NCBI GenBank assembly: GCA_015488335.1
Contig: WFNZ01000051.1
Coordinates: 1 to 64,000, forward strand
DNA: 64,000 nt
Origin: Thermovibrio sp.
GTDB lineage: Bacteria; Aquificota; Aquificia; Desulfurobacteriales; Desulfurobacteriaceae
Direction of reading: 5' to 3'
The first letter of the stretch is position 1. Every line of letters begins with the position of its first letter. Below are positions 1 to 63,636 of this stretch, in pieces. Both the position numbers and the translations under genes were made by a program. The notes beneath the pieces were generated by a model. That model did no database searches and was not told the DNA's origin. It saw nothing but the letters and a program-made list of their open reading frames with translations.

Positions 1-943
1 CTATAAGTCGCTCATTAGTAGAGAAGCTCCTCACATCAATTACACTTCTTTGGTAAACAGAGAAATAGATTTTGCTATTTGATAATCTATATCCTGATTC
101 CTTTGCCAAATCTTTCTTTTTTAAGAGAAAACCATCTCTTTCTAAATCTCCATTTTTAAATTTATTTAAAATCTTTATAGGCTCCAACGTCCCAATTTTT
201 CTGGAAGTTACGTTCTTCAGATGGAAGCTCACTTTTTGATCTTTCAGCACAGACGTTCTCTCTTTTGAACTTTCAACCGTGGTAACTAAACTATGATTCA
301 CTATTTGCCCAGGAGCTACGCCAAAAAAGTGGATTGAATTTTGGGGAGCTCCCTCAAGGCTCACATGGTCTTTATCCAATTTGAATAGTCGTTCACTCCT
401 ATTTTTAATCAATTTTAACTGAAGTTTGGCGGGTAAAAACCTCTTTAAAGGTTTATAAGTAAAGACAGGAAGTTTTTCTTTCCTTTTTACTGCAGAAGAT
501 GAAAGTAACTCCTTTCTCAGCTTTGCTTTCAGAACCGGAAAAATGTAGCTCTTTCCATTATAAAGCCGACGTGCCAATCTATACTTCACAAAAACATCTT
601 TCTCTTTAAGTGGAACTCTCAACATAAGTCCCTTATCTGGGGTAATCTTTTTTTCTTGTTTACTAAGCTTATCAGGAGAATTTATACTAATAGAACGGAG
701 CTTTCCAGAATAGAGATTTGTTAAGGTGGATTTGTAATCCTGTAAAGAGAGAAGAGAAACATTTGAGTATTTTTTCAAAGGAAAACTACGAGAGATATTG
801 GCAGTTTTTACTTCCTCCTTTAAGGAGTTTAGTAAAATATACCTAAAAAGGTTTTCACTACTATGCTCTTTTAAGGCATCAGCCCTACCTTTCTTTTTTG
901 TGCTAAATCCTGGAGCAGACAGCAGAACGTGAAAAATGTTCAT
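1..943 (-). CDS. Partial Ser/Lys-rich protein at end of flagellar cluster (possible FliK)
   Basis: An uninterrupted reading frame of 314 codons runs from an ATG at 943 off the left edge, so the C-terminus is missing. The start is preceded by GGGAGAG at good spacing and lies 37 bases after fliA on the same strand. The visible part is hydrophilic, low in complexity and rich in Ser, Lys, Leu and Asn. It has no signal peptide, membrane segment or catalytic motif that I recognise. Position after fliA in a flagellar operon, composition and length fit the variable N-terminal part of a hook-length control protein FliK. The diagnostic C-terminal hook domain would lie outside the window. It is more AT-rich than its neighbours. 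The CDS is well supported; FliK is a guess. Confidence 0.8.
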   Translation of the reverse strand, partial: MNIFHVLLSAPGFSTKKKGRADALKEHSSENLFRYILLNSLKEEVKTANISRSFPLKKYSNVSLLSLQDYKSTLTNLYSGKLRSISINSPDKLSKQEKKITPDKGLMLRVPLKEKDVFVKYRLARRLYNGKSYIFPVLKAKLRKELLSSSAVKRKEKLPVFTYKPLKRFLPAKLQLKLIKNRSERLFKLDKDHVSLEGAPQNSIHFFGVAPGQIVNHSLVTTVESSKERTSVLKDQKVSFHLKNVTSRKIGTLEPIKILNKFKNGDLERDGFLLKKKDLAKESGYRLSNSKIYFSVYQRSVIDVRSFSTNERLI

Positions 944-980
944 CTCTCCCTCTTTAAAAATTGACATTTTCAATTATAAC

Positions 981-1592
981 TTATAATTGACGTTCCAGTG
1001 TTTTCTTTAATTTCTTTAAAGCTCCTGTTTTTATCTGCGAAACTCTTGAGACTGAAACTCCCAGTATCTCTCCTATAGACTTAAGGTCAAGCTCCTCAAC
1101 AAATATGAGCTGAAGAACCAACTGCTCCTTTTCTGAAAGCTGAGATATTGCGGAAGAGAGGACTCTCTTTGCTTCTTCCCTCAAAACCTGTTCTTCCGGG
1201 TCGGGAAAGTCTGAAACGAGAGTATCCTTTACAAAGTATCTCTCCGAATTTCCAAAGAGCTTTTCCTCAATTGAGATAAGTGTGGCTATCTCTTCCCTTA
1301 ATTCTGATGTTTCCCCATTTTTTATCTTCTCCCTCACATTTCGTGGGAGAAAGTCCAGTTTCCTCAAATAATCTAATATCTCTCCCCTTATCTTTATGTA
1401 AGCATAGGTGGAGAACTTCGCTCTGTTTGAATCGTACTTTTCTATAGCTTTGATAAGACCTATAACTCCCGTATTTACCAGTTCATCAAAATCAACAACC
1501 CCTTCAGGGAGCCTCCTGAAAATTTTACTGGCAACCTTCCTGACAAGAGGAAGGTGCTCCATAACAAGGTCTTTCCTTGACTTCGTATACAT
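981..1592 (-). CDS. fliA: Flagellar sigma factor sigma-28 (FliA/WhiG family), short form
   Basis: Alternative sigma factor expected to direct late flagellar promoters. Region 2 is clear near residues 30-75 (DFDELVNTGVIGLIKAIEKY, then FSTYAYIKIRG). A region 4 helix-turn-helix lies near 165-195 (LKSIGEILGVSVSRVSQIK). At 203 residues it is shorter than the usual 230-250, and the stretch between regions 2 and 4 does not look like a normal region 3. I start at the ATG at 1592, which overlaps the flhG stop as TGATG and has GGAAGG upstream; the longer frame would need a TTG. The family is confident; the reduced region 3 is the odd point. Known partners are anti-sigma FlgM and RNA polymerase; flgM is not seen here. 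Confidence 0.92.
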   Translation of the reverse strand: MYTKSRKDLVMEHLPLVRKVASKIFRRLPEGVVDFDELVNTGVIGLIKAIEKYDSNRAKFSTYAYIKIRGEILDYLRKLDFLPRNVREKIKNGETSELREEIATLISIEEKLFGNSERYFVKDTLVSDFPDPEEQVLREEAKRVLSSAISQLSEKEQLVLQLIFVEELDLKSIGEILGVSVSRVSQIKTGALKKLKKTLERQL

Positions 1593-2446
1593 CAAACACC
1601 TTCCCTGAAGAACCGAATTAGCCTGCTTATAAAACTCTCCTTCTCTTCGGGAATAACCTCTCCCGTTTCTAACTGAACTATCTTTTTAAGCTCTGTAGAA
1701 AACGGATCTGAAGGGTATAGATGAACTACAGGTTTGGCTTCTTTCAAGGCTTCTTTCAATCTTGAAGAGTAGGGAAGAATACCTGCAAGTTTTAAACGGA
1801 AACCTAAGAACTTTTCAACAGACGTTCTGAGTCTGTCAAAGGTCTCAAAGCCCTCGTTCTTAGACGAAGCAGAGTTGACTATGACTTTAAATGAAGAATA
1901 ACCGTAAACCCTGTAAACGCTTTTTATAAAGGCATAGGCATCTGTAAGAGCAGTAGGCTCTGGAGTAGTTATAACGTAGGTTTCAGAAGCTGCCCTTGAA
2001 AAGTTAACTGTAAACCGGGAAATGCCGGCAGAGTTGTCTAAAATGATAAAGTCGTAGTTATCTATAACTCTGTCTAACTGGATTAACAGGTTTGCCGCTT
2101 CGTAAGATTCCAACTCTTCTAAGGAGTCTATACCGGAGAATCCCAGAACAACGTCAAAGTTGTAGGCCCGTTGAACAACCTCTTTGAGGGAGCTCCCCTT
2201 CAAAACCGCCTTCAAGTTCTTTGAAGGGTCAAGCCCCAGTAGAAGGTGAACATTTCCAAGACCTATATCGCAGTCAAGAAGGAGAACTCTTTTACCAAAA
2301 ACGTTAGCAAGTGTATAGGCAAAGGACGTTGATACGGTCGTCTTTCCAACCCCTCCTTTGCCGCTGACAAAAGAGAGGACTTTACACCTGTTACCTCTGT
2401 TTCTCTCCCTTACAAGCTCTATCAACTTTTCTGCCTGCTTCTCCAT
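1592..2446 (-). CDS. flhG: MinD-like ATPase, flagellar number regulator FlhG/FleN
   Basis: ParA/MinD-superfamily ATPase of 284 residues. The deviant Walker A motif KGGVGKTT lies at residues 30-37, after an N-terminal segment (EKLIELVRERN) that resembles the DQAxxLR-type helix by which FlhG activates the FlhF GTPase. Later motifs include the switch DCDIGLGNVHLLLG and IILDNSAG. A membrane-targeting helix is plausible at the C-terminus (ISRLIRFFREG). It is wedged between flhF and fliA with 3-4 base overlaps, the usual arrangement. FlhF and FlhG together set flagellar number and position. Confident assignment. Confidence 0.93.
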   Translation of the reverse strand: MEKQAEKLIELVRERNRGNRCKVLSFVSGKGGVGKTTVSTSFAYTLANVFGKRVLLLDCDIGLGNVHLLLGLDPSKNLKAVLKGSSLKEVVQRAYNFDVVLGFSGIDSLEELESYEAANLLIQLDRVIDNYDFIILDNSAGISRFTVNFSRAASETYVITTPEPTALTDAYAFIKSVYRVYGYSSFKVIVNSASSKNEGFETFDRLRTSVEKFLGFRLKLAGILPYSSRLKEALKEAKPVVHLYPSDPFSTELKKIVQLETGEVIPEEKESFISRLIRFFREGV

Positions 2447-3591
2447 CAGCCTCCCAGTAAAATATCAGCTATTACGGTAGGTGTCAGGAGTTTAATATCC
2501 TCAGGAACCCTCTGACCTGTGCTTACATACGAAAGGGGAAGACCCGATTTAACACCCACATTAACCATAACACCAGGTTTTGAAGATTCATCAATCTTCG
2601 TAAATAAGAGGAAATCTACAGGGAAAAAGCTTCTGTACCGGTTTACAACCTCTATGGCCTCTTTAGTATCGTAGTTGCAGGAGATTAGCAGAACGTACTC
2701 TATAGAAGTTCCTAAAATAGAAAGAGTGGCTTTTATCTCTCCCAATCTGAAGTAGTCGTAGTGGCTCCTGCCTACCGTATCTATCAGGATAACGTCTAAG
2801 TCCTTCAGGTTTTCAACTATCTCTTTCAGTTTCTTTTGATCTGTAGCAACGTAGAAAGGGACGTTAAGTATTGAAGCGTAAATACGTGCCTGTTGAGTTC
2901 CCCCAACTTTAAAAGTGTCTGTGGAGATAACACCAACTTTTAGTTCCTGCTCTATAACGAACTTACTGGCAAGCTTAAACAGGTTTGTGGTCTTTCCAAC
3001 TCCTGTAGGACCTACGAAGGCAAAAATCCTCTGGTTTCCCTTCTCTACCTTTAATTCACCGGTAAAGGAAAGTTTCTCTTCAAAAGCATTTATCAGTGCT
3101 TCTTTAAAAGTATTGGTGTTAAGGTCTAATTTCTCTGCCTCTATGTCTAAGCCACAGGAAACTTTAACTAGTTCAACGGCAATGTCGGGTTCTACTCCCT
3201 TTTTAACAAGAATGTTAATAAGCTCAACAGCATCTCCGGTAAACTCATCAATCTGCGGAATGGAACAGGGTGCTTTATCCTCAAGGTGTTCTGGAACAGA
3301 TGGAATAGGCACAGGCTGTTGAGAAGGCAGTTTGGAAACGTTTTCTTTGAGGGTTAAAAGGAGCTCCTTAACTTCCTTCAGCTCCTCCTCAAGTTTTTCT
3401 ACCTCCCTCTCCTTTTCTTCTCTCTTTTCTTTCTTTGTAACAAAGAGTCTATAACGTCTTTTCTTAAGAAAAGGAATTATACCGGGAATCTTCTCTACCT
3501 CGTAGTAGAGTATCTCAACGTCACCCAACTCCTCTTTAGCCCTTTCTATAAGGGCATCTAAATCCTCTCCTTCATAAATCTTCACACTCAT
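2446..3591 (-). CDS. flhF: Flagellar biosynthesis SRP-type GTPase FlhF
   Basis: A 381-residue protein with the FlhF layout. A charged, low-complexity coiled N-terminal region (about 50-105, rich in E/K, then proline) precedes an NG GTPase domain. The P-loop GPTGVGKTT is near residues 194-202, followed by DTFKVGGTQQ and the DTVGR motif near 271. FlhF is a homolog of Ffh/FtsY that marks the site of flagellar assembly and is activated by FlhG. Its start overlaps the flhA end by 4 bases (ATGA), and its TGA overlaps the flhG ATG, implying translational coupling. Confident. Confidence 0.94.
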   Translation of the reverse strand: MSVKIYEGEDLDALIERAKEELGDVEILYYEVEKIPGIIPFLKKRRYRLFVTKKEKREEKEREVEKLEEELKEVKELLLTLKENVSKLPSQQPVPIPSVPEHLEDKAPCSIPQIDEFTGDAVELINILVKKGVEPDIAVELVKVSCGLDIEAEKLDLNTNTFKEALINAFEEKLSFTGELKVEKGNQRIFAFVGPTGVGKTTNLFKLASKFVIEQELKVGVISTDTFKVGGTQQARIYASILNVPFYVATDQKKLKEIVENLKDLDVILIDTVGRSHYDYFRLGEIKATLSILGTSIEYVLLISCNYDTKEAIEVVNRYRSFFPVDFLLFTKIDESSKPGVMVNVGVKSGLPLSYVSTGQRVPEDIKLLTPTVIADILLGG

Positions 3592-5666
3592 TTTCCGTCA
3601 ACCACCCCCACAATATTCAGCTGAACCCCAGGTTCAACCTCTGCATAAGAGAGAACGGCAACGTTCGGAAGGTAAGGTTCAAAAATCATCCGAACAAATC
3701 GCCTAACAGCCGGTGAGGTAAGAACAACAGGAATCAGCTGTTGACTCAGGAAGTGACCAACCCCTTCTGAAACGCTTTTAACCAAGTTCTGAACAAAAAC
3801 AGGGTCTAAAGGTGGAAGGTAGCCTTCATTTTCCTTAACCTTCTTTAGTATAAAGTCTTCAGCTTCTGGAGAGAGAGAAAGGGCTGTTAAAACACCGTTC
3901 TTAGCGTAAAGGCTCGTAATGAGACGGGATAAGGACTGTCTCGCAAATTCTGTAAGGACATCGGGATCCTGGGTCTTCTCAATGTTATCTGCAACAGACT
4001 CAATAATCGTTAATAGGTCTTTAACGGGAACTCCCTCCTTCAGGAGGTTCTGAACAACTTTTGTCAGGATACCGTAAGAGACCGGCTCTGGAACCATATC
4101 TCTAACAACCGGGTATCGTGAAGCCAGTTTTGTAACCATTTCTTTAATATCAGACCTGCTGATAATTTCGTGAGCATGCTTTTTGATAACCTCCGACAGA
4201 TGGGTAACTATAACGGTAGGAACATCTACAACCGTATAACCTAAAAGCTTTGCCCTGTCTTTCTCAGAATCATCAACCCAGTATGCCGTAAGACCAAAGG
4301 CTGGCTCCTTGGTAGGTTTCCCCTTTACCTCTCCCCTTACACCTCCAGTATCAATTGCAAGAAACTTGCCAGGTTCAATCTCTCCCCTCGCAACTTCCAC
4401 ATCTCTCAAAAGTATTCTGTACTCGTTAGGCTTCAGCTCAAGGTTATCCCTTATATGAACAAGAGGAATAACTATTCCAAGCTCCTTAGCAAGCTGTTTC
4501 CTGAGGTTCTTTATCTTCTCAACGATCTCTCCTCCCTGGCTCTCATCAACGTAAGGAATGAGGGAGTAGCCGATTTCAAGGGTTATAGGTTCAGGTTGAA
4601 CTATCAGATCTTCTACCTTTTCTTCCTTACCCTTTTCTATGAGTTCCTTGGCTTTCTTCTGGGCCTCTTCAAATTCTTTAACTGTTTCGTACTTATAGAC
4701 CATATAACCGACAGCAGCAACAAGGGCAGCAAGAAGAGAGAAGGGAAGCGTAGGCATTCCGGGAACTATACCGATAATGGCCAGAATCAGGGCAGCCATA
4801 AAAAGGGGTTTATGGTACTTGGTAAGCTGTTTGAATATCTCATGCCCCAGGTCTGTTTCAGCTGCTGCCCGCGTAACCATAAGACCTGCAGCAGTTGAGG
4901 TGATAAGAGAAGGAATTTGAGATACAAGGCCATCTCCAACTGTGAGAATAGTAAAGGTTTTAAGGGCGTCTGAAAAGCTCATGTGGTGCTGAACCATACC
5001 TATTATTAAACCACCTATGATGTTTATAAGGGTTATGATAATGCCAGCTATGGCATCTCCACGGATAAACTTTGAAGCACCGTCCATAGCTCCGTAAAAG
5101 TCGGCTTCTCTGGCTATTTCCTCTCTCCGCCTTCTGGCCTCTTCTTCATCTATAAGACCGGCGTTCAGATCTGCATCTATACTCATCTGTTTTCCGGGCA
5201 TTGCATCCAAAACGAAGCGTGCGGCAACTTCTGAAATCCTCTCTGTACCTTTTGTAACAACGATGTAGTTTATTATGACCAGAATGGCAAAGACGATAAT
5301 TCCAACAACGTAGTTACCACCAACAACGAACTGACCAAAAGCTTTTATAACGTTACCGGCTGCCTCTGGCCCCTCGTTTCCGTGGAGAAGAATCCTCCTG
5401 GTTGTAGCCACGTTGAGGGAGAGACGGAGAAGGGTTGCAAGGAGAAGGAGTGAAGGGAAAGAGGAGAGCTCCAACGGGTGCCTCACGTAAACCGTCGTCA
5501 TAAGGATAACTAAAGAGAAGGAAATGCTGAAGGTAAGGAGAATATCTAAAAGGAGTGGTGGAATGGGAAGTATCATGCTAGCCAGAATGGCCAGTATAAG
5601 AATGACAAATATGAGGTCTGAATACTTGTAAACCCGCGAGTAGTACAGAGTTAGAGATTCTTTCAT
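3588..5666 (-). CDS. flhA: Flagellar type III export apparatus protein FlhA
   Basis: A 692-residue export-gate component. The N-terminal half carries about eight hydrophobic segments (for example residues 18-70, 110-135, 200-300). Between them is the conserved FHIPEP-family cytosolic loop with ADLNAGLIDEEEARRRR. The C-terminal half is the soluble docking domain for export chaperone-substrate complexes, with typical phrases such as GVRGEVKGKPTKEPAFGL and PAVRRFVRMI. I start at the ATG at 5666 rather than the upstream TTG; the ATG overlaps the preceding stop. FlhB, FliP, FliQ and FliR are not in this window. It contains no copy of the GGAGCTCC palindrome. Confidence 0.96.
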   Translation of the reverse strand: MKESLTLYYSRVYKYSDLIFVILILAILASMILPIPPLLLDILLTFSISFSLVILMTTVYVRHPLELSSFPSLLLLATLLRLSLNVATTRRILLHGNEGPEAAGNVIKAFGQFVVGGNYVVGIIVFAILVIINYIVVTKGTERISEVAARFVLDAMPGKQMSIDADLNAGLIDEEEARRRREEIAREADFYGAMDGASKFIRGDAIAGIIITLINIIGGLIIGMVQHHMSFSDALKTFTILTVGDGLVSQIPSLITSTAAGLMVTRAAAETDLGHEIFKQLTKYHKPLFMAALILAIIGIVPGMPTLPFSLLAALVAAVGYMVYKYETVKEFEEAQKKAKELIEKGKEEKVEDLIVQPEPITLEIGYSLIPYVDESQGGEIVEKIKNLRKQLAKELGIVIPLVHIRDNLELKPNEYRILLRDVEVARGEIEPGKFLAIDTGGVRGEVKGKPTKEPAFGLTAYWVDDSEKDRAKLLGYTVVDVPTVIVTHLSEVIKKHAHEIISRSDIKEMVTKLASRYPVVRDMVPEPVSYGILTKVVQNLLKEGVPVKDLLTIIESVADNIEKTQDPDVLTEFARQSLSRLITSLYAKNGVLTALSLSPEAEDFILKKVKENEGYLPPLDPVFVQNLVKSVSEGVGHFLSQQLIPVVLTSPAVRRFVRMIFEPYLPNVAVLSYAEVEPGVQLNIVGVVDGK

Positions 5667-5962
5667 CAACTTCCCTCTCTCCCGTAAGCCTTCAAAACTC
5701 TACTGAACATAGGTTCAAGGCTCTTTCCAATTTCTTCTCCTATCTTCTGGGAGAGCTCCATATTGAAAAGATCCCAGTAAAGCTTCGTAGAGAAATTCCC
5801 TTCAGGAGAAAAAAGACCTTCTGGCATAGACTTTTCTGCCTCTTTGAGGAACTGGTTAACAAGGTAAACTTCAAACTGTCTAACCGCCTCTTTTCCGCTC
5901 TTTATTTCCTCAATCTGGGCAAGATCCCAGTAAACCTCTGCTCTACCTACCCCGTCTAACAT
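5666..5962 (-). CDS. flgJ: Rod-binding protein, FlgJ N-terminal type
   Basis: A 98-residue protein that resembles only the rod-binding domain of FlgJ: a helix around FEVYLVNQFLKEAEKSMP, then YWDLFNMELSQKIGEEIGKSL. The peptidoglycan hydrolase half found in enterobacterial FlgJ is absent, as in many bacteria where the muramidase is a separate protein. It starts 8 bases after flgI, matching the flgI-flgJ order elsewhere. It probably acts as the rod-cap scaffold in the periplasm. The ribosome binding site (GGTGA) is weak, which suggests coupling to flgI. Fairly confident from domain and context. Confidence 0.85.
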   Translation of the reverse strand: MLDGVGRAEVYWDLAQIEEIKSGKEAVRQFEVYLVNQFLKEAEKSMPEGLFSPEGNFSTKLYWDLFNMELSQKIGEEIGKSLEPMFSRVLKAYGREGS

Positions 5963-5970
5963 CTTTCACC

Positions 5971-7062
5971 CTACATAATTATCAGTTTTGCGTGGAGCTT
6001 ACCTGCAGCTTTTATGGCCTGAATTATCGCTATAAGGTCACCAGGGGAAACTCCTAACTGGTTTAAAGCCTTTACAAGGTCTTTAAGTGACGGAGAGTTA
6101 ATCGCAAATATCCTTCCGTGCTCCTCAACAACCTGGGTTTGAACGTTTTGAACAACTTTAGTCTGGCCACCAGAAAGGGGAGGTGGTTGTGAAACAACAG
6201 GAGTTTTTGTAACAGAAACGTAAATGTTGCCGTGGGAAACGTATACAGGAGGATCTATTTTAACGTCGCCACTCATTATAACAGTCCCCGTCTTCTCGTA
6301 GATAACAACTGTGGGTTCAGGATTTGTATCCACTTTAAGGTTCAAAACTTCAGAGATAAACTGGACTTTATCCACTCCCGGAGGATAGTTAACCTTAACA
6401 GTTGCAGAGTCTACAGCTCTTGCTATTTTCATTTTAAAGTGGCTGTTTATCTTTTCGGCTATCTCACTGGCAATGGAAAAGTTGGGAGAGTTCAGTGTAA
6501 GGGTTAAATTTTTAAGCTGGGAAAGTTCAAAAGGAAGAGGCCTTTCAACGATACCACCGTTTGGAACAATACCCGCCGTAGGAAAGTTCTTCTGAACCTT
6601 TCCCCCTCTGTTTGACTCGCTGTAACCTCCTCCGGTTGAAACAGGTCCCTGGGCAAAGGCGTATATCTTTCCGTCGGGTCCCATAAGTGGAGTTCTGATA
6701 AGAACTCCGTTGGCTATGCTCTTTGCATCACCTAAAGAGGCAACTTCAACGTCAAAGGTCATTCCCGGCTTTGCAAAAGGGGGAAGCTTTGCCGTTACGA
6801 TAACGGCAGCAGCGTTTTTCGTCTTTATAGCCTTAGGGTCTATGTAAATTCCCATTTTCCTGAGCATATTTGCAATACTCTGGAGCGTAAAAACGCTGGT
6901 AGTTCCATCTCCGCTACCGTTTAAACCAACAACAATTCCGTAACCGGTAAGGTAGTTAGGCCTTACCCCTTCAACGTTAACCAGAGTTCCTATTTTTACC
7001 TCTGCTCCCAACGAAACGGCTGTAAAGAGGAAAAAGAGGAGTAGAAATCTCAAAATAACCAT
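5971..7062 (-). CDS. flgI: Flagellar P-ring protein FlgI
   Basis: A 363-residue periplasmic P-ring subunit. A signal peptide (MVILRFLLLFFLFTAVSLGA) precedes the conserved start VKIGTLVNVEGVRPN and the hallmark GYGIVVGLNGSGDG. The C-terminus has the typical SLKDLVKALNQLGVSPGDLIAIIQAI pattern, broken here only by small substitutions. I chose the internal ATG at 7062 because AGGAG lies directly upstream and the signal peptide then starts properly; the 7-residue longer frame begins inside flgH. It lies between flgH and flgJ as in many flagellar operons. Very confident. Confidence 0.95.
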   Translation of the reverse strand: MVILRFLLLFFLFTAVSLGAEVKIGTLVNVEGVRPNYLTGYGIVVGLNGSGDGTTSVFTLQSIANMLRKMGIYIDPKAIKTKNAAAVIVTAKLPPFAKPGMTFDVEVASLGDAKSIANGVLIRTPLMGPDGKIYAFAQGPVSTGGGYSESNRGGKVQKNFPTAGIVPNGGIVERPLPFELSQLKNLTLTLNSPNFSIASEIAEKINSHFKMKIARAVDSATVKVNYPPGVDKVQFISEVLNLKVDTNPEPTVVIYEKTGTVIMSGDVKIDPPVYVSHGNIYVSVTKTPVVSQPPPLSGGQTKVVQNVQTQVVEEHGRIFAINSPSLKDLVKALNQLGVSPGDLIAIIQAIKAAGKLHAKLIIM

Positions 7063-7070
7063 GTTAACTC

Positions 7071-9440: not shown

Positions 9441-9451
9441 ATCTCCCTCCT

Positions 9452-10168: not shown

Positions 10169-10170
10169 AA

Positions 10171-11632: not shown

Positions 11633-11640
11633 AGAGCCTC

Positions 11641-12678: not shown

Positions 12679-12685
12679 AATTCAA

Positions 12686-16125: not shown

Positions 16126-16126
16126 A

Positions 16127-17277: not shown

Positions 17278-17278
17278 C

Positions 17279-18202: not shown

Positions 18203-18205
18203 CAA

Positions 18206-18803: not shown

Positions 18804-18842
18804 AAACGCCTCCTCTTAAAGTTTGAGCGAATTGTATCATAG

Positions 18843-19646: not shown

Positions 19647-19680
19647 CTCTCCCTCCTTTAACCGTTGTCCTTCCGATTCT

Positions 19681-44920: not shown

Positions 44921-44937
44921 AGAGGCAGGCGGAAGGC

Positions 44938-53902: not shown

Positions 53903-53929
53903 TCTACCTCCCTGCCCTGACCCCCCGCA

Positions 53930-54115
53930 GGGCAGACGAGTTTTCGCACGGGCCGGTCTCCCGGCTCGCAGGGTTCATTTAGGCCAGTGCCTTCCCGGAG
54001 TGGCGGCTCTTAACCTCTCCACTCCAGTGGCAAAGGCCCGGTTATTCCCTGCTCACGGTTGCGGGGACAGCGCCGGACTCTCACCGGACTTCCCGTTCAC
54101 CCGTGCAGCCAAATT
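53930..54115 (-). promoter_or_regulatory. Cobalamin (B12) riboswitch
   Basis: Upstream of btuF on the minus strand. The conserved core GCTGTCCCCGCAACCGTGA (near 54075-54050) and the B12 box AGCCGGGAGACCGGCC (53966-53951) are unmistakable. It is preceded by GGTGAACGGGAAG and by GCCACTG-type segments. The region ends in a hairpin CTGCCCTG/CAGGGCAG (53912-53935) directly before the GGGAGG ribosome binding site of btuF. No U-tract follows this hairpin, so control of translation is more likely than transcription termination. Binding of adenosylcobalamin or another cobamide should lower btu expression. Confidence 0.93.
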
Positions 54116-54166
54116 CTAACAAAAGGGCTGTATAATTAGGTCTTACTCAAAGGTAGGAGTAAGAAA

Positions 54167-55384: not shown

Positions 55385-55398
55385 CTCTGGAGGAGGTG

Positions 55399-56685
55399 GT
55401 GGAGAGTTTCAAGGTTGGAATCGTCGGCTGCGGAACGGTGGGGGGCGGTGTTGTGGAGCTCCTTTTCAAAAACCGAGAACTGATAGAGAAAAGAATCGGG
55501 AAACCGGTTGAAATAGCCTTTGTTGCAGATAGAGACACGGAAAAAGTTAAAGCCCTCGGTGTTCCTGAGGAAAAAGTTTTTGATGATGGTCTGAAAGCCC
55601 TTGAGGTCCAATGTGATGCCGTTGTTGAGCTGATAGGCGGAACGGGAATTGCCAAAAGAGTTGTTGAGGAGGCCCTAAAGAGAAAGAGGCATGTAGTAAC
55701 GGCAAACAAGGCACTCCTTGCAGACTACGGAGAGGAGCTCTTCAATCTGGCAAGGGAGAACGGCGTTTCGCTGAAGTTTGAGGCAAGCGTTGGTGGCGGT
55801 ATTCCTGTAATAAAGGCCTTAAGGGAAGGGCTTGTTGGAAACAGAATAGAAGCCATCTACGGAATCATAAACGGAACGGCGAACTTCATTCTAACAGAGA
55901 TGAGCCAGAAGGGAATGAGCTTTGAAACAGCCCTTAAAGAGGCCCAGGAGTTGGGATTTGCCGAAGCCGACCCCACCTTAGACGTTGAAGGATTTGACGC
56001 AGCCCACAAAATCGCAATCCTCTCAAGCCTTGCATACTGCAGATGGGTGAAAACAGAAAACGTTTTCGTTAAAGGGATAAGAGAGCTTACTCCCTTAGAC
56101 ATAGAGATAGCCCGTGAGGAGTTCGGCTATTCGGTCAAGCTCCTTGCAATAGCAAAGACTACAGACGGAGAGCTTGAGGTAAGGGTTCACCCAACAATGA
56201 TTCCAGAGGAGAATATCCTCTCAAGCGTCAACGGAGTATTCAACGCCTGCCTTATAGAGGGAGATTTTGTCGGGGATACCCTTTACTACGGCAAAGGTGC
56301 AGGTAGAAGGCCAACGGCAAGCGCAGTAGTTTCAGACATAGTTGACGTTGCTCTGGGAAATACCTACGATGTTCCAGAGTGTTTGATAAAGGGTAGAGAG
56401 GAGCTCCCCCTAAAACCCCCCAATCAGTTTACTTCAAGTTTCTACTTAAGGTTCACAGCTGTTGATAGGCCGGGAGTTCTTGCAAAAATTGCGGAAATAC
56501 TTGGAAAAGAACAGATAAGCATAAAGAGCGCCCTCCAGAAGAGTTTAGACTTTGAGGGGGGCGTTCCGATAGTTATGACAACCCACCCTGCCAGAAAAGA
56601 GCAGATAGACAGGGCAATAGCCGAAATAAACAGGTTGGACGTGATAGTAAAACCGACATTCATCTGCATGATTGAGGAGCTCTGA
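55399..56685 (+). CDS. hom: Homoserine dehydrogenase
   Basis: A 428-residue enzyme. Rossmann start VGIVGCGTVGGGVVE, then TANKALLADYGEELF, EASVGGGIPVIKALREGL, GIINGTANFILTEM and the catalytic ELGFAEADPTLDVEGFDAAHK. The C-terminal ACT domain is at about 350-428 (YLRFTAVDRPGVLAKIAEIL), supporting feedback control by threonine. Starts at one of two GTG codons (55396 or 55399); GGAGGA spacing favours 55399. Converts aspartate semialdehyde to homoserine for Thr, Met. Confident. Confidence 0.95.
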   Translation: MESFKVGIVGCGTVGGGVVELLFKNRELIEKRIGKPVEIAFVADRDTEKVKALGVPEEKVFDDGLKALEVQCDAVVELIGGTGIAKRVVEEALKRKRHVVTANKALLADYGEELFNLARENGVSLKFEASVGGGIPVIKALREGLVGNRIEAIYGIINGTANFILTEMSQKGMSFETALKEAQELGFAEADPTLDVEGFDAAHKIAILSSLAYCRWVKTENVFVKGIRELTPLDIEIAREEFGYSVKLLAIAKTTDGELEVRVHPTMIPEENILSSVNGVFNACLIEGDFVGDTLYYGKGAGRRPTASAVVSDIVDVALGNTYDVPECLIKGREELPLKPPNQFTSSFYLRFTAVDRPGVLAKIAEILGKEQISIKSALQKSLDFEGGVPIVMTTHPARKEQIDRAIAEINRLDVIVKPTFICMIEEL

Positions 56686-56686
56686 G

Positions 56687-57385
56687 ATGGTAATCGTAGC
56701 CCTTGACTTTGACAGGTGCGAAAAGGCTCTAAACCTTGTTGACACACTTGGAGATACGATAAACCACTACAAAGTTGGCCTGGAGCTCTTTTCAAGGTGT
56801 GGAATAGAGGTTGTAAAAGAGATTTCAAAGAGAGGGAAAAAAGTTTTTTTAGACCTCAAATACCACGACATTCCAAACACAGTTAAGTCTGCAGCAAGGG
56901 TTGGCATAGAAGCTGGAGTCTGGATGTACAACGTCCACGCCCTTGGTGGATTTGAATTTTTAAAACAGATTGCAGAGTTCAATAAAGAATACGCTGAAAA
57001 AATCGGCGCTGAGAGGCCGCTTCTCATAGCCGTAACAATTTTAACCAGCATGGATGAAAATGACCTTAAAAGTGTTGGAATAGAGTCTTCAGTGGAAGAT
57101 GAGGTTTTAAGACTGGCAGAGCTCTCCAAAAAAGCAGGGCTTGACGGAGTAGTCTGTTCTGCAAGAGAGGTAAGGCTCATAAAGGAGAACCTCGGAGAGG
57201 ACTTCATAACCGTTACGCCGGGAATAAGGCCAACCTGGGCTGCAAAGAACGACCAGAAGAGGGTTGTAACGCCGAAAGACGCTGTAAAACTTGGAACGGA
57301 CTACATGGTGATAGGAAGGCCGATAACGGGAGCTCCCGACCCCAAAGAAGTAGCAGGGAAAATAATTTCTGAAATTTCAAAGTAA
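56687..57385 (+). CDS. pyrF: Orotidine 5'-phosphate decarboxylase
   Basis: A 232-residue TIM-barrel enzyme of pyrimidine synthesis. Active-site DLKYHDIPNTV (Lys-Asp pair) and VTPGIRP, preceded by VALDFDRCEKAL, fit the E. coli-type group. I start at the ATG at 56687, 1 base after the hom stop and behind GAGGAGC; a TTG 5 codons earlier lies in hom. It is the last gene of the run; the T-rich hairpin region after it may stop transcription. Confident. Confidence 0.95.
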   Translation: MVIVALDFDRCEKALNLVDTLGDTINHYKVGLELFSRCGIEVVKEISKRGKKVFLDLKYHDIPNTVKSAARVGIEAGVWMYNVHALGGFEFLKQIAEFNKEYAEKIGAERPLLIAVTILTSMDENDLKSVGIESSVEDEVLRLAELSKKAGLDGVVCSAREVRLIKENLGEDFITVTPGIRPTWAAKNDQKRVVTPKDAVKLGTDYMVIGRPITGAPDPKEVAGKIISEISK

Positions 57386-57462
57386 GAATTACCAGAGAAG
57401 AAAAAGAGTAAACCTTAAAATAGAGGCTTATTTCCGATATCTACTTCTATTTTCTTCCTGTT

Positions 57463-57500
57463 AGAAACGTTAACGTTCTGGTTTTCTATTTTCTTTTAAG
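57463..57500 (+). terminator. Possible weak terminator after pyrF
   Basis: The 12-bp perfect palindrome AACGTTAACGTT (57466-57477), extended by AGAA/TTCT, can fold as a small hairpin followed on the plus strand by GGTTTTCTATTTTCTTTT. The 183-base gap between pyrF and the convergent HD-GYP gene holds nothing else I can name. Confidence 0.4.
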
Positions 57501-57568
57501 AAAGGCGAGATTTTACAACTATAGTCCCTTTTGAGTTCTCTTACTTATCTTAAATACTCATTGAAATC

Positions 57569-58891
57569 CTAATTTTTACAAGACGACTCAAAACTTGAAA
57601 CGACTTCTTTAAGTTCGCCGTAGAGCTCTGCAGCCAACCTCTGGGAAATTTGCCTGCTCCTATCAATTGCTTTCAAGTTATTCCTCAAAACAGAAACAAC
57701 CTGAGTATCAAGCTCTCCTTCTTCTGAAAGTTGAATCATCATTCTTACAGCTTCAGAGCTGGAAATAGATTTCTTGTAAGGTCTTTCTTCTGTTAAAGCT
57801 GTGAACATATCTGCAACTGCCATAATCCTTGAACCGAGAGGGATTTTGTTGGCCTTAAGCTTAAAGGGATAGCCTTTACCGTTTAACCTTTCATGATGGT
57901 AAGAAGCCCATTCCACCACATCTTCATTCTTTATAAATCGGCTAAGTATTCTGTAGGTATGGTAAACGTGTGATTTCATAATGAAGAACTCTTCCTCTGT
58001 TAACTGTGCCGGTTTCTCCAAAATTTCGTTGGGGATAAAAATTTTTCCAATATCATGTAAAAAACCTGCAATCTTCATTTTTCTTAACTCTTCCTGAGAA
58101 AAATGGAAATAAGAGGCCAAATGGGTTGCCGTCTGAGAAACTCCAGAGGAGTGGGTGGCGGTAAAAGGGCTTTTGAAGTCTATAATGAAACCAAAAAGGT
58201 TAACCGTTCTGAGGAGCTCCCCAATACTCATAGCAAAATCTAACCTGTCAAGCCAGTCAACAACAGTCTCTCTAACATACTCTTCTTCAGTATAAAGGTT
58301 AAACCAGAATGCTTCCTTCTCGTAGTAAAAGTTGAACAGTATATCAAGCAATTTTGGACTAAATAGAAAACCGCGCCCTTCCTCCAGTTTTCCTTTTAAA
58401 GAAGAAATAGCATCAAGGAGAGAATACCCTTTTAACAGTCTATTGTTAATCCATACATCTACTCTATCTGCAAGAAAAAGTATCTGTGCTGGAAAAGAAA
58501 ATTTCTGGGGACTGCCAATAAATTCAGAATAGGATCTATGGTGGTCTCTTATTATTTTCGCAGCTTCTTTAAAAAAGGGATATCTGTTTAAAAGGTTAAA
58601 ACCTATCTCAGCATGAAGATGGATTGCTCTACTATTGAAGTTCTCTTCTTTTAAAAGAGCTACCTGCTCCTTTTCTTTAAAAAATAAAATACCAATATCG
58701 TGGAAGAGCGAGGCTATGAGAATATTTAAAAGAAACTCACGGGAAAATGAGAGCTTATTAGCAATCGCAAGAGAAATTAAAGCAACCCTTAAGTTGTGTC
58801 CTCTAAGTGAAGGGTCAAAACAGGCACTAAGATTTGAAATTTCAATTAAGAGCTTGGATATATTGTAGTAATAACCGAGATTAAATACCAA
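57569..58891 (-). CDS. Tandem HD / HD-GYP domain protein
   Basis: A 440-residue cytosolic protein with two HD domains. The first (about 29-160) has FHDIGILFF, HAEIG and IRDHHRSY but no GYP. The second (about 243-400) is a full HD-GYP: HSSGVSQTATHLAS, FLHDIGKIFIP, SHVYHTY, HHERLNGKGYPFKL and the VADMFTALTEERPYKK tail. HD-GYP proteins hydrolyse cyclic di-GMP; no receiver or GGDEF domain is attached. It is AT-rich and isolated by gaps. Enzyme activity is inferred from the motif. Confidence 0.88.
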   Translation of the reverse strand: MVFNLGYYYNISKLLIEISNLSACFDPSLRGHNLRVALISLAIANKLSFSREFLLNILIASLFHDIGILFFKEKEQVALLKEENFNSRAIHLHAEIGFNLLNRYPFFKEAAKIIRDHHRSYSEFIGSPQKFSFPAQILFLADRVDVWINNRLLKGYSLLDAISSLKGKLEEGRGFLFSPKLLDILFNFYYEKEAFWFNLYTEEEYVRETVVDWLDRLDFAMSIGELLRTVNLFGFIIDFKSPFTATHSSGVSQTATHLASYFHFSQEELRKMKIAGFLHDIGKIFIPNEILEKPAQLTEEEFFIMKSHVYHTYRILSRFIKNEDVVEWASYHHERLNGKGYPFKLKANKIPLGSRIMAVADMFTALTEERPYKKSISSSEAVRMMIQLSEEGELDTQVVSVLRNNLKAIDRSRQISQRLAAELYGELKEVVSSFESSCKN

Positions 58892-58914
58892 ATTAACCCC
58901 TTCCCGCCCTCACA

Positions 58915-58941
58915 AAAATAAAAAGGGGGCAGAATGCCCCC
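58915..58941 (-). terminator. Intrinsic terminator after the ferredoxin gene
   Basis: GGGGGC (minus 58941-58936) and GCCCCC (58930-58925) with loop ATTCT, then TTTTTATTTTT on the minus strand. Almost the same hairpin, GGGGGC-GTTCT-GCCCCC, occurs after tsf at 60462. Confidence 0.85.
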
Positions 58942-58953
58942 GATGGTTGCCGA

Positions 58954-59130
58954 TTACTCGGCTGAGATTGCGTCTGTTGGGCAGACCTCTACGCAGGCAC
59001 CGCAGTCAATGCAGTCGTCTGGGTTGATGTAGTATTTTCCGTCGTCAGTTGGGCTGATGGCGTTCGTTGGACATACAGATGCACACGCGCCACAGCCGAT
59101 GCAGAGTTCAGGGTCAATCTTGTGAGCCAT
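58954..59130 (-). CDS. fdx: Ferredoxin, 2[4Fe-4S] bacterial type
   Basis: A 58-residue ferredoxin with two clean CxxCxxCxxxCP motifs: CIGCGACASVCPTNA and CIDCGACVEVCPTDA. I choose the ATG at 59130 (AAGGAGG at 7 bases) over a GTG 3 codons earlier that touches the ribosome binding site. Such small ferredoxins feed low-potential electrons to oxidoreductases such as 2-oxoacid oxidoreductases of the reductive TCA cycle. It sits after frr in the same strand. Confident. Confidence 0.95.
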   Translation of the reverse strand: MAHKIDPELCIGCGACASVCPTNAISPTDDGKYYINPDDCIDCGACVEVCPTDAISAE

Positions 59131-59143
59131 AGTACTCACCTCC

Positions 59144-60450
<1,307 letters not shown>

Positions 60451-60456
60451 TTATAC

Positions 60457-60478
60457 GAAAAGGGGGCAGAACGCCCCC
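60457..60478 (-). terminator. Terminator between tsf and pyrH
   Basis: GGGGGC (minus 60478-60473) with GCCCCC (60467-60462), loop GTTCT, then TTTTCG. The short U-tract (four) suggests incomplete stopping, that is, an internal attenuator lowering pyrH-frr expression relative to rpsB-tsf. Confidence 0.7.
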
Positions 60479-60483
60479 GGGAA

Positions 60484-61080
60484 TTACTTGCCAACTTCAA
60501 AACGGCAGAAGCGCTTAACCTTGATGTTCTCACCAAGCTTGGTGATGTAGTCTGTTAAGAGGTCTTTTATTGTCTTGCTGTCATCCTTTATCCAGGGCTG
60601 CTCCAAGAGGCACTTTTCGGAGAAGAATTTGGAGAGCCTTCCCTCAACTATCTTCTCAACTATGTGCTCGGGCTTGCCCTCGGCAAGTGCCTGCTCCTTA
60701 AGGACTTCTTTCTCTTTTTCAACTATTTCAGCAGGAACGTCCTCTCTGCTCACGTACTCGGGAGCCATTGCAGCAACCTGCATTGCTATCTCGTGGCCTA
60801 AGTTCTTGAAGTCTTCAGTCCTTGCAACGAAGTCAGTTTCACAGTTGAGCTCAACTAAAGCTCCAACCTTACCGCCTGCGTGGATGTAGGAGACAACGAT
60901 TCCCTCAGCTGTTGCTCTTTCAGCTTTCTTTGCAGCCTTAGCAGCACCCTTCTTCCTCAGTATCTCAACGGCCTTCTCTATATCTCCGCCGGCCTCCTGA
61001 AGGGCCTTCTTACAGTCAACAATTCCCGCTCCTGTCTTCTCACGGAGCTCCTTTATCATCTGAGTTGTTATCTCAGCCAT
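60484..61080 (-). CDS. tsf: Elongation factor Ts, short form
   Basis: A 198-residue EF-Ts, as short as the Thermus type and lacking the extra domains of E. coli EF-Ts (283). It has the N-terminal [20 protein letters not shown], quoted as [15 protein letters not shown], and the TDFVAR motif ([12 protein letters not shown]). I use the ATG at 61080, behind GGAGGAG, dropping the ORF's first six codons. Exchanges GDP on EF-Tu. Confident. Confidence 0.95.
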
Positions 61081-61097
61081 TTCTCCTCCTCCTTTCA

Positions 61098-61964
61098 TTA
61101 CTCTTCAGGCAGGAAGTCAAGCTCTTCCTCGGCAGCTTCCTCACCTTCGGCAAGCTTTATAGCCTCTCTCCTCATCTTTCCTTCAAGAACGGCGTCTGCA
61201 ATCCTTGACGTGAGGAGCCTGATAGCCCTTATAGCGTCGTCGTTTGCTGGAATCGGGTAGTCTACGAGATCTGGGTCTGCGTTTGTGTCAACGAGGGCAA
61301 CAATAGGAACTCCGGCCTTCCTGGCCTCTCTAACGGCGTTTTCTTCCCTAACGATGTCAACAATGAAGAGGGCGTCGGGAAGGCGGTTCATGTTCTCAAT
61401 ACCGCCGATGTATTTCTCAAGCTTCTCCTTCTTCCTGCGGAGCCTTACAGCCTCTTTCTTTGGAAGCTGCTCTAAAACCCCTTCCTCTTCCATCTTCTTG
61501 AGCATCTTCAGTTTGTAAACGGATTTCCTGATGGTCTGGAAGTTTGTGAGGGTTCCACCTAACCACCTCTTGTTAACGTAGAACATTCCGCAGCGCTTTG
61601 CCTCTTCCTCAACAATGTCCTGACCCTGCTTCTTTGTGCAGACAAAGAGAACTGTTCCGCCGTTTGCAACTAAGTCTGCGATGTAGTCGTAGGCTTCCTC
61701 AAAGAACTTGATGGTCTGCTGAAGGTCAATGATGTGGATGCCGTTACGCTCTGTGAAGATAAACTTCTTCATTTTGGGGTTCCAGCGCTCCTTCTGGTGG
61801 CCGAAGTGGACGCCGGCCTCAAGGAGCTCCTTCATCGTAACCCTCTGGCCAGGCGGCCTTGGCTTAAAGGTCTCCTGCTCCTGAACTTCTTGAGTCTGCT
61901 CCTGCTGAACTTCCTGAACCTCTTGAGTTTCCTGAGGCTGCTGCTCTTTCATCTCTTCAGACAT
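61098..61964 (-). CDS. rpsB: Ribosomal protein S2 with Gln/Glu-rich N-terminal extension
   Basis: A 288-residue S2. The conserved core starts near residue 43 ([16 protein letters not shown]), with [28 protein letters not shown] and [15 protein letters not shown]. The first ~40 residues are a repeat-like Q/E/V extension ([18 protein letters not shown]) absent from most S2 proteins. It is probably real: an AGGAGGT sits right before the ATG at 61964, and no ribosome binding site is obvious before the core. C-terminus is acidic. Structured leader upstream. Confident. Confidence 0.94.
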
Positions 61965-62005
61965 TTCTACCTCCTGATATGGGTTTTTCCTCCCGAGCCT
62001 TCATC

Positions 62006-62041
62006 CTCCGGAAGAACCCGTAAAGGGCACCCCTTCCGGAG
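62006..62041 (-). promoter_or_regulatory. rpsB leader hairpin
   Basis: A perfect 9-bp stem, CTCCGGAAG (62041-62033) with CTTCCGGAG (62014-62006), in the rpsB 5' leader about 40 bases before the start. Candidate for S2 autoregulation, as leaders of rpsB-tsf bind S2 in other bacteria. A TATATT -10 candidate lies about 30 bases upstream; no convincing -35. A smaller GGTTTC/GAAACC hairpin (62079-62095) lies just after hyuB. Confidence 0.5.
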
Positions 62042-62097
62042 TCTGGCCGGTGAGTTTTCAACGGGAAATATATCCGATTTGGTTTCAAAAAGAAACC

Positions 62098-63636
62098 TTA
62101 ACTTCCCCAGCCGCCGCCTCCGGGGGTCTCTATTCTCAGCTTCTCGCCGGGGTGGAAACGGCGGGTGAACTTGGCGGGGAGCTCCACCTCCTCCCCCTCT
62201 GGTTTTACGAGGACGTTTCTTCCTCTCTTTCCAGGCTTTCCCCCGTTTAGTCCATAGGAACTGTGGGTTCTCCTCTCAGAAACAACCGTTACGTCAACTT
62301 CCTCTAAAAAGAGGAGTTCTCTAACTATTCCGTCTCCTCCTCTCCACTTTCCATCTCCGCCGGAACCCCTCCTTACGCCGTAGCGGGTAACCATAACGGG
62401 AAACTGGAACTCAAGGGCTTCAACGGGAGTGTTGAGGGTGTTTGTCATGTGGGTATGAACAGCGCTGGCTCCGTCAAAACCGTTTCCTGCTCCCGCTCCC
62501 CCTCCAATTGTTTCGTAGTAGGTGAACTTCTCGTTTCCAAAGGTCAGGTTGTTCATAGTTCCCTGAGAAGCTGCGGGGATTCTCTCGGGGATAGCTTTTG
62601 AGAGAGCTCCAAGTTGAACGTCTGTTATCCTCTGTGAGGTTTCAACGTTTCCACCTGAAACGGCCGCAGGGAACTCAGCATCAACAACTGTTCCCGGCTT
62701 CGTTATAACCTTTATCGGCCTTAGTATTCCCTCGTTTGTCGGTATCTCCTCCCCTGCAAGACACCTGAAGACGTAGAGGGTTGACGAGACAACTATTGAG
62801 CGAACTGCGTTTAAACAGCCACGAACCTGAGGGTCTGATGGTGAGAAGTCAACTGTTGCCTCTTCTCCTTTTATTGTAAGAACAACCCTTATCCTTACGT
62901 TCCTGTTTCCCGCTCCGTCGTCGTCTAAGAAGTCCCCAAAGGTGTAAACGCCGTCGGGAATTTCTGATATTACTCTTTTCATCATTTTCTCTGAGTAGTC
63001 TAAGAGGGCTTCCGAGTAGGCCTCAAGGAACTCTGAACCGTACTTCTCAAGGAGCTCCCTTAATCTCCTTATCCCAATTCTGTTTGCCATAACCTGAGCT
63101 TTAAAGTCTCCCTCCCTCTCATCGGGAGTTCTTGTGTTGGCCTTTAAGAAGTTCAGGAAATCGGTTAAAACCTCTCCGTTTTCAACACACTTAACAGGGG
63201 GAATTACAAGCCCTTCCTGAAAAATTGAAGTTGAGAGGGGCATTGAACCGGGGGTTATTCCACCAACGTCTGAGTGGTGGGCACGGTTTGCAACGTAGAA
63301 GAGGAGCTCCCCTTCGTAGTAAACGGGGGCAACAACGGTTATGTCTGGAAGGTGTGTTCCCCCTTTAAAGGGGTCGTTGATAGCTGCCATATCTCCTTCT
63401 TTCAGCTCAACGTTTTCAACAACGCTCCTTACAGACATGGGCATTGAGCCAAGGTGGACGGGGATGTGGGCTGCCTGTGCAACCATCCGGCCGTGGCGGT
63501 CAAAGATGGCGCAGGAGAAGTCTCTCCTCTCCTTTATGTTTGGCGAAAAGGCTGTCCTCTGGAGAACTGCTCCCATTTCTTCGGCAACCGAGATAAGGGC
63601 GTTCTTTATCACTTCAAGCTTTATCGGGTTAACCAT
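62098..63636 (-). CDS. hyuB: Hydantoinase B / oxoprolinase-type subunit
   Basis: A 512-residue HyuB-family protein. It starts VNPIKLEVIKNALISVAEEM, quoted as IKLEVIKNALIS, then RTAFSPNIKERRDFSCAIFD, HIPVHLGSMPMSV, NDPFKGGTHLPDITVVAPV and NRAHHSDVGGITPGSMP. The C-terminus ends in glycines (TPGGGGWG). Partners with HyuA (upstream, overlapping by 8 bases) in ATP-dependent 5-oxoprolinase, hydantoinase or acetone/acetophenone carboxylase-like enzymes. Substrate not resolvable. Confident family. Confidence 0.92.
   Translation of the reverse strand: MVNPIKLEVIKNALISVAEEMGAVLQRTAFSPNIKERRDFSCAIFDRHGRMVAQAAHIPVHLGSMPMSVRSVVENVELKEGDMAAINDPFKGGTHLPDITVVAPVYYEGELLFYVANRAHHSDVGGITPGSMPLSTSIFQEGLVIPPVKCVENGEVLTDFLNFLKANTRTPDEREGDFKAQVMANRIGIRRLRELLEKYGSEFLEAYSEALLDYSEKMMKRVISEIPDGVYTFGDFLDDDGAGNRNVRIRVVLTIKGEEATVDFSPSDPQVRGCLNAVRSIVVSSTLYVFRCLAGEEIPTNEGILRPIKVITKPGTVVDAEFPAAVSGGNVETSQRITDVQLGALSKAIPERIPAASQGTMNNLTFGNEKFTYYETIGGGAGAGNGFDGASAVHTHMTNTLNTPVEALEFQFPVMVTRYGVRRGSGGDGKWRGGDGIVRELLFLEEVDVTVVSERRTHSSYGLNGGKPGKRGRNVLVKPEGEEVELPAKFTRRFHPGEKLRIETPGGGGWGS

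What the first reader, a model, noticed from the sequence alone, without database searches (positions are those of the whole stretch)
345..63310. HIP1-like iterated palindrome GGAGCTCC across the window
I count 47 exact copies (about one per 1.4 kb) of a palindromic 8-mer expected about once in 64 kb. Many are longer (GGGAGCTCCC; 12-mers CGGGAGCTCCCG at 57327, AAGGAGCTCCTT at 44995 and 61821, GTGGAGCTCCAC at 44219). It is read as Gly-Ala-Pro, Glu-Leu and, at least once, Ser-Ser, and one copy (27806) is between genes, so codon choice alone is not an obvious cause, although Glu-Leu context may add to it. It is scarce in flhA-flgH (3.4-7.8 kb), in most of nuo and in the first 3 kb of dnaE. Possible roles: methylation or restriction target, uptake sequence, repair or recombination signal, or neutral mutation bias as suspected for cyanobacterial HIP1. 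No equivalent is known to me in this phylum.
Basis: partly seen in the sequence, partly recalled or inferred. Interest (0 to 1): 0.72.

Follow-up and report, generated by a model that had tools for sequence, protein, structure and literature searches.

The report
Genome-wide palindromic tag, GGAGCTCC
A heat-loving deep-branching bacterium carries the same 8-letter DNA palindrome about once per 1,100 letters throughout its genome; it is not a by-product of codon use, related species carry the same or altered spellings, and the best guess is a 'this is our DNA' tag, although what reads it is not known.

Summary
GGAGCTCC occurs 47 times in the window (1.7 expected) and 1451 times in the 1.645-Mb genome. 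A codon-pair-preserving model of 338 kb yields 43 ± 6 coding copies against 253 seen. All three frames are enriched, and strict intergenic DNA has 9 copies against 0.07 expected. The genome belongs to Desulfurobacteriaceae (Aquificota).

The real signal is RGAGCTCY, best as GGAGCTCC. It is lineage-specific within the family. Thermovibrio ammonificans and another genus instead iterate the one-base, non-palindromic variant RGAGCTTC (2177 and 925 copies). A third genus iterates AAAATCCCC. Copies are kept between close relatives beyond codon expectation.

A HIP1-style orphan methyltransferase is not supported: Thermovibrio sp. S141_83 (1309 copies, 99% complete) has none of the type II methyltransferase families searched. 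Most likely this is a self-DNA recognition signal with dialects, as in Neisseriaceae (confidence 0.4). High density on a conjugative-type plasmid and in restriction loci counts against that and for a repair bias. No reader protein has been identified.

The parts
345..352 (.). GGAGCTCC, frame GGA GCT CC in ORF 2-973(-)
2189..2196 (.). GGAGCTCC, frame xGG AGC TCC (Ser-Ser)
3360..3367 (.). GGAGCTCC, Glu-Leu frame
7828..7835 (.). GGAGCTCC, Glu-Leu frame
8488..8495 (.). GGAGCTCC, Glu-Leu frame
10478..10485 (.). GGAGCTCC, frame GGA GCT CC in fliN-like ORF 10171-10695(-)
11834..11841 (.). GGAGCTCC, frame GGA GCT CC
11991..11998 (.). GGAGCTCC, Glu-Leu frame
12372..12379 (.). GGAGCTCC, Glu-Leu frame
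15516..15523 (.). GGAGCTCC, Glu-Leu frame
16110..16117 (.). GGAGCTCC, Glu-Leu frame
16943..16950 (.). GGAGCTCC, frame GGA GCT CC
19553..19560 (.). GGAGCTCC, Glu-Leu frame
19589..19596 (.). GGAGCTCC, Glu-Leu frame
22064..22071 (.). GGAGCTCC, frame GGA GCT CC
24161..24168 (.). GGAGCTCC, Glu-Leu frame
24284..24291 (.). GGAGCTCC, Glu-Leu frame
26130..26137 (.). GGAGCTCC, Glu-Leu frame
27706..27713 (.). GGAGCTCC, frame GGA GCT CC
27806..27813 (.). GGAGCTCC, intergenic; intact in 3 relatives although the flanks diverge (47-72% identical)
29367..29374 (.). GGAGCTCC, Glu-Leu frame
33806..33813 (.). GGAGCTCC, Glu-Leu frame
38609..38616 (.). GGAGCTCC, Glu-Leu frame
39841..39848 (.). GGAGCTCC, frame GGA GCT CC
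43617..43624 (.). GGAGCTCC, Glu-Leu frame (dnaE)
43854..43861 (.). GGAGCTCC, Glu-Leu frame (dnaE)
44221..44228 (.). GGAGCTCC within GTGGAGCTCCAC, Glu-Leu frame
44997..45004 (.). GGAGCTCC within AAGGAGCTCCTT, Glu-Leu frame
45408..45415 (.). GGAGCTCC, Glu-Leu frame
47316..47323 (.). GGAGCTCC, Glu-Leu frame
48580..48587 (.). GGAGCTCC, Glu-Leu frame
49216..49223 (.). GGAGCTCC, frame GGA GCT CC
51649..51656 (.). GGAGCTCC, Glu-Leu frame in ORF 51569-52399(-)
51676..51683 (.). GGAGCTCC, Glu-Leu frame in ORF 51569-52399(-)
52084..52091 (.). GGAGCTCC, Glu-Leu frame in ORF 51569-52399(-)
53170..53177 (.). GGAGCTCC, Glu-Leu frame
53302..53309 (.). GGAGCTCC, Glu-Leu frame
53533..53540 (.). GGAGCTCC, Glu-Leu frame
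55455..55462 (.). GGAGCTCC, Glu-Leu frame
56400..56407 (.). GGAGCTCC, Glu-Leu frame
57329..57336 (.). GGAGCTCC within CGGGAGCTCCCG, frame GGA GCT CC
58213..58220 (.). GGAGCTCC, Glu-Leu frame in ORF 57569-58891(-)
61044..61051 (.). GGAGCTCC, Glu-Leu frame
61823..61830 (.). GGAGCTCC within AAGGAGCTCCTT, Glu-Leu frame
62178..62185 (.). GGAGCTCC, Glu-Leu frame
63051..63058 (.). GGAGCTCC, Glu-Leu frame
63303..63310 (.). GGAGCTCC, Glu-Leu frame
5465..63835 (.). 41 further copies of the degenerate form: AGAGCTCC or GGAGCTCT x33, AGAGCTCT x8 (first at 5465, last at 63828)
   Evidence: enriched against synonymous shuffles

Best explanation
GGAGCTCC is the best form of a degenerate, iterated 8-bp signal, RGAGCTCY. 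The signal is kept at about one copy per kb over the whole genome of a Desulfurobacteriaceae bacterium and most of its relatives. Shown: it is not codon usage; it lies in every frame and between genes; it is conserved at the DNA level between close relatives but turns over between genera; it has no strand or positional polarity; and related lineages have switched to another spelling (RGAGCTTC) or another word (AAAATCCCC). Inferred: a sequence-specific DNA reader uses it as a mark of self DNA, most likely during natural transformation by type IV pili and ComEC. The reader protein is not identified.
For: Density is 1451 per 1.645 Mb. Coding copies number 253 against 23.4 (synonymous permutation) and 43.3 +/- 6.1 (codon-pair model) in G000; 214 against 39 in G001; 78 against 18 in G010. 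It is the top word among all 8-mers in G000 and G001. Strict intergenic: 9 against 0.07 expected. Of the one-base neighbours only AGAGCTCC is strongly enriched (O/E 4.97; GGAACTCC 1.82, all others at most 1.44), so a specific RGAGCTCY reader fits better than decay. One-base dialect RGAGCTTC: 2177 copies in T. ammonificans and 925 in G006 against 121-461 in the other genomes, often at the same orthologous sites. AAAATCCCC: 427 and 282 copies in genus g5 against 86 or fewer elsewhere. Motif codons are kept 96/111 against 73 expected in G001, with the same trend in G002, G003 and G005. The intergenic copy at 27806 is intact in three relatives. Sites sit at otherwise variable residues. No strand, replichore or gene-position bias. 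ComEC is present in all 16 good genomes. Dialect switching can be placed on the tree.
Against: The conjugative-type plasmid of T. ammonificans carries its dialect at 2.2 per kb of coding DNA, above the chromosome's 1.4. Restriction-modification loci carry RGAGCTCY at 1.38 per kb, close to the genome average of about 1.6. In Neisseriaceae, DUS accumulate in the core genome. Known uptake sequences are not palindromic. ComEC is also present in genomes without the motif, so it does not discriminate. Natural transformation was not shown for this family in anything read here. Beyond the genus, site-by-site conservation is no better than codon expectation.
Confidence: 0.4

Rival explanations
1. A biased replication-repair or gene-conversion process acts on all resident DNA and creates and protects RGAGCTCY, as in Elhai's model of HIP1 but without a conserved methylase. 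The word itself would have no use.
For: Plasmid and restriction-modification loci are saturated like the rest of the genome. Density rather than position is conserved at long distance. Spacing is close to Poisson. O/E is constant over gene G+C from 36 to 52%.
Against: A bias needs a sequence-specific reader of 8 bp. One-off words are not strongly enriched except AGAGCTCC. The non-palindromic dialect RGAGCTTC has no place in the published model.
Confidence: 0.22
2. HIP1-type element tied to DNA methylation: an orphan methyltransferase modifies GAGCTC (or AGCT) and the mark has a cellular use.
For: [quoted passage not shown] G000 itself has three PF01555 enzymes. GAGCTC is strongly avoided in G006, as if restricted there.
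Against: G001 (1309 copies, 99% complete) has no PF01555, PF00145 or PF02086 match and only a type I HsdM among PF02384 and PF07669 matches of DNA-methylase size. No PF00145 match in any of the six same-genus genomes. Different PF01555 groups occur in different motif-rich genomes. The dialect word is not a palindrome.
Confidence: 0.18
3. A chromosome-wide binding site for an architectural, segregation or recombination protein (nucleoid protein, Chi-like or KOPS-like).
For: Genome-wide spread in coding and intergenic DNA; conservation between close relatives; also on a plasmid.
Against: No strand or replichore polarity of the non-palindromic dialect (81 forward, 96 reverse over seven regions), unlike Chi or KOPS. 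No regional concentration, unlike matS or parS. No position bias in genes.
Confidence: 0.17
4. Codon or dipeptide usage (Glu-Leu written GAG CTC) produces the word.
For: About 80% of coding copies are in the Glu-Leu frame.
Against: Five to ten times more copies than synonymous or codon-pair shuffles; 9 against 0.07 in strict intergenic DNA. T. ammonificans, where codons do roughly explain GGAGCTCC (26 against 18.7), is the exception that shows the test works.
Confidence: 0.01

Closest known systems
HIP1 (GCGATCGC) of cyanobacteria
   Same: G+C-rich 8-bp palindrome, about one per kb, in coding and intergenic DNA, first/last position most tolerant, lineage-dependent, longer 10-mer form preferred in free contexts
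   Different: Different phylum and word; no methyltransferase shared by motif-rich genomes; purine/pyrimidine degeneracy at the ends; sister lineages iterate a non-palindromic one-base variant
DNA uptake sequences of Neisseriaceae and their dialects (PMC3630211); uptake signal sequences of Pasteurellaceae
   Same: Thousands or more than a thousand copies per genome, coding and intergenic, permissive positions, dialects of few base changes distributed consistently with the species tree, competence genes present
   Different: The main dialect is palindromic; dense on a conjugative-type plasmid and in restriction-modification loci; no receptor or uptake preference known
Chi / KOPS / matS signals
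   Same: Short, frequent, genome-wide or chromosome-scale signals
   Different: No strand polarity and no regional concentration
Methylation-based self recognition of Campylobacter jejuni (RAATTY; from memory, not read here)
   Same: Degenerate palindrome of the same R...Y form proposed as a self mark
   Different: There the mark is the methylation; here no common methylase was found and the word itself is in large excess

Membership tests
HIP1-type highly iterated palindrome | Palindromic octamer in large excess genome-wide, beyond composition and codon usage | tested here: met
HIP1-type highly iterated palindrome | Cognate orphan methyltransferase for an inner sequence in the genomes that carry it | tested here: not met
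   G001 has 1309 copies and no type II methyltransferase of five Pfam families; caveat: MAG, 1% missing, rarer families not searched
HIP1-type highly iterated palindrome | Alternates in related genomes are again palindromes | tested here: not met
   RGAGCTTC and AAAATCCCC are not palindromes
HIP1-type highly iterated palindrome | Methylation of the sites | not testable with these tools
   needs long-read signal
DNA uptake sequence (DUS/USS) | Dispersed word at roughly one per kb in coding and intergenic DNA | tested here: met
DNA uptake sequence (DUS/USS) | Dialects differing by few bases that follow the phylogeny | tested here: met
DNA uptake sequence (DUS/USS) | Competence machinery encoded | tested here: met
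   ComEC in 16 of 16 good genomes, also in motif-poor ones; PilY1-like gene and minor pilins in G000
DNA uptake sequence (DUS/USS) | Concentration in core genes, poor in mobile DNA | tested here: inconclusive
   Plasmid and restriction-modification loci are rich; the two longest motif-poor stretches of the G000 DNA sampled are a low-G+C island with pilin genes and an ankyrin/CsgG region
DNA uptake sequence (DUS/USS) | Word-dependent DNA uptake and a receptor | not testable with these tools
   needs transformation and binding assays
Chi / KOPS | Strand polarity with respect to replication | tested here: not met

The most novel reading that the evidence does not exclude
A family of self-DNA recognition words with dialects in a deep-branching thermophilic phylum.
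Probability: 0.35. Interest if true: 0.82.

Novelty: new variant of a known kind. Interest (0 to 1): 0.64.

Why it matters
The use of HIP1 has been open since it was described in 1995. Here is a second, independent HIP-type system, apparently with no methyltransferase in at least one motif-rich genome and with one-base dialects in close relatives, including the cultivated and fully sequenced Thermovibrio ammonificans. That makes two long-standing ideas directly testable against each other: a methylation or repair by-product, and a self-DNA uptake mark. If it is an uptake mark, it would extend sequence-specific transformation well beyond Neisseriaceae and Pasteurellaceae.

Tried and rejected
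Codon or dipeptide usage: rejected by two shuffles and by intergenic copies. Conserved orphan methyltransferase: five Pfam families searched in 22 genomes, none tracks the motif. Reversed-word control: judged unsafe because TCGA is avoided. rRNA as the cause of the motif-free stretch in L226: no Rfam match. Viruses: four CRISPR spacers of G000 searched in IMG/VR gave no hit, so the motif content of its viruses stays unknown. Literature: no paper in the held library contains the word GGAGCTCC, and none seen reports an iterated palindrome in this family. A call to name the G000 methyltransferases failed on frame coordinates and was not repeated.
Full report
WHAT WAS CHECKED. The window is contig C51 of a 1.645-Mb, 70-contig, 99% complete genome (G000) that holds 1451 copies. 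DnaE matches and contig lengths place it in Desulfurobacteriaceae, phylum Aquificota. Its genus (g1) includes the MAG Thermovibrio sp. S141_83 (G001; 98% DnaE identity). G027 is Thermovibrio ammonificans HB-1; its 76,561-bp second contig matches plasmid pTHEAM01.

NOT CODON USAGE. On 338 kb of G000, 253 coding copies compare with 23.4 after permuting synonymous codons within genes and 43.3 ± 6.1 under a model that keeps amino-acid sequence and codon-pair frequencies. The excess is in all frames (32, 16 and 205 observed; 8.5, 2.6 and 32.1 expected). On 658 kb the coding count is 499 against 46. In DNA with no ORF of 60 aa or more in any frame (17.1 kb) there are 9 copies against 0.07 expected; six of the seven control palindromic octamers gave none and one gave two. 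An unbiased scan of all 8-mers against the synonymous null ranks GGAGCTCC first in G000 and G001. The excess is constant over gene G+C from 36 to 52%.

THE REAL MOTIF. AGCT-centred words show additive half-site preferences GG (2.8x) and AG (2.1x). Of the twelve one-base neighbours only AGAGCTCC is strongly enriched (377 against 76), GGAACTCC mildly (112 against 62), and the rest are near or below expectation. The signal is therefore RGAGCTCY with GGAGCTCC as optimum. Spacing is near Poisson, copies lie evenly along genes, and the non-palindromic dialect shows no strand bias relative to genes or along the chromosome.

LINEAGES AND DIALECTS. In the family GGAGCTCC is high in g1 (683-1451), g4 (327-1257) and g6 (457-787), low in g3 (44-169) and near absent in g2, g5 and g7. 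In 136 genomes of the phylum RGAGCTCY exceeds 1500 only in this family and in one outlier, G071. T. ammonificans (g4) has no real excess of GGAGCTCC once codons are considered (26 against 18.7). Instead it and G006 iterate RGAGCTTC, one base away and not a palindrome (GAAGCTCC 90 against 22 and 62 against 14); genome-wide 2177 and 925 copies against 121-461 elsewhere. At G000 motif sites the commonest aligned word in both is GGAGCTTC. G006 avoids GAGCTC itself (7 against 62). Genus g5 iterates AAAATCCCC (427 and 282 copies), also within coding sequence and on both strands. On a tree from 21 concatenated proteins the simplest history is RGAGCTCY arising after the split from g7, lost in g5 and respelled in G006 and G027. 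Deep nodes are not all well supported.

CONSERVATION. Against G001 (83% nucleotide identity) 23 of 31 sites are intact, and codons in the motif are unchanged 96 of 111 times against 73 expected from the same codons elsewhere; G002, G003 and G005 agree. Beyond the genus the excess vanishes (G010 37/65 against 34.8), so density rather than position is kept. The intergenic copy at 27806 is intact in G001, G003 and G005 while its flanks are only 47-72% identical. Motif sites lie at residues that vary more than average in distant relatives, i.e. at permissive positions.

METHYLTRANSFERASE TEST. G001 has 1309 copies and is 99% complete, yet has no match to PF01555, PF00145 or PF02086. Among PF02384 and PF07669 it has one type I HsdM (493 aa, at a contig edge) and small 250-295-aa proteins that I take for RNA or protein methylases. 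No PF00145 match exists in any of the six g1 genomes. [quoted passage not shown]). One missing gene in a MAG or an enzyme of another family remains possible.

MECHANISM. Shown: a sequence-specific process keeps RGAGCTCY (or a lineage-specific respelling) at about one per kb. Density, permissive sites, DNA-level conservation, one-base dialects and the presence of ComEC in all good genomes fit DUS-like biology (PMC3630211). Against it, the conjugative-type plasmid pTHEAM01 and restriction-modification loci carry the word at or near chromosomal density, which a repair or conversion bias on all resident DNA explains more simply. I rate uptake tag 0.40, repair bias 0.22, methylation 0.18, chromosomal binding site 0.17. 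A lead only: one of the two longest stretches without the exact word in the 658 kb of G000 sampled, and the more clearly anomalous one, is a low-G+C island (33-39% against 45%) holding lptAB, a PilY1-like gene and several minor pilins. Minor pilins are the class that reads DUS in Neisseria. Low G+C alone may explain the absence.

Noticed in passing
L124-L128 and L109 (genus g5 genome G009): Non-palindromic AAAATCCCC dispersed on both strands, 427 copies in G009 and 282 in G025 against 86 or fewer in other genomes, also in coding frames; looks like an independent uptake-type word.
   Followed up: partly
window 1-64000 and all g1, g4, g6 loci: Extreme avoidance of 4-bp palindromes: TCGA O/E 0.07 in G000 and 0.00 in G010, GATC 0.00-0.04 in G004, T. 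ammonificans, G028, G029 and G009, GTAC 0.04 in G005; the set differs by genome, as if from past restriction systems.
   Followed up: partly
L226:1-7500 (G000 contig C32): Low-G+C island with no RGAGCTCY in its first 6 kb, coding lptA, lptB, a PilY1-like protein of 1288 aa and several minor pilins; candidate locus for a DNA-reading pilin.
   Followed up: partly
G006 (genus g2): GAGCTC strongly avoided (7 against 62 expected) while GAAGCTCC is in excess: either restriction of GAGCTC or a respelled motif.
   Followed up: partly
G071 (family f4, genus g11): RGAGCTCY 1783 copies in 1.2 Mb, far above its relatives: possible independent origin in another family.
   Followed up: no
L099 near 15030 (G001, ortholog of window 27806): The conserved intergenic copy sits in a 24-bp perfect palindrome AAAGGGGTGGAGCTCCACCCCTTT in G001.
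   Followed up: no
L215 from 36 (G000 contig C21, CRISPR array): One CRISPR spacer of G000 contains GGAGCTCCC, so some invading DNA may carry the word.
   Followed up: partly
L235 (plasmid pTHEAM01 of T. ammonificans): Plasmid with F-type transfer genes carries 114 RGAGCTTC in 50 kb, denser than the chromosome.
   Followed up: yes
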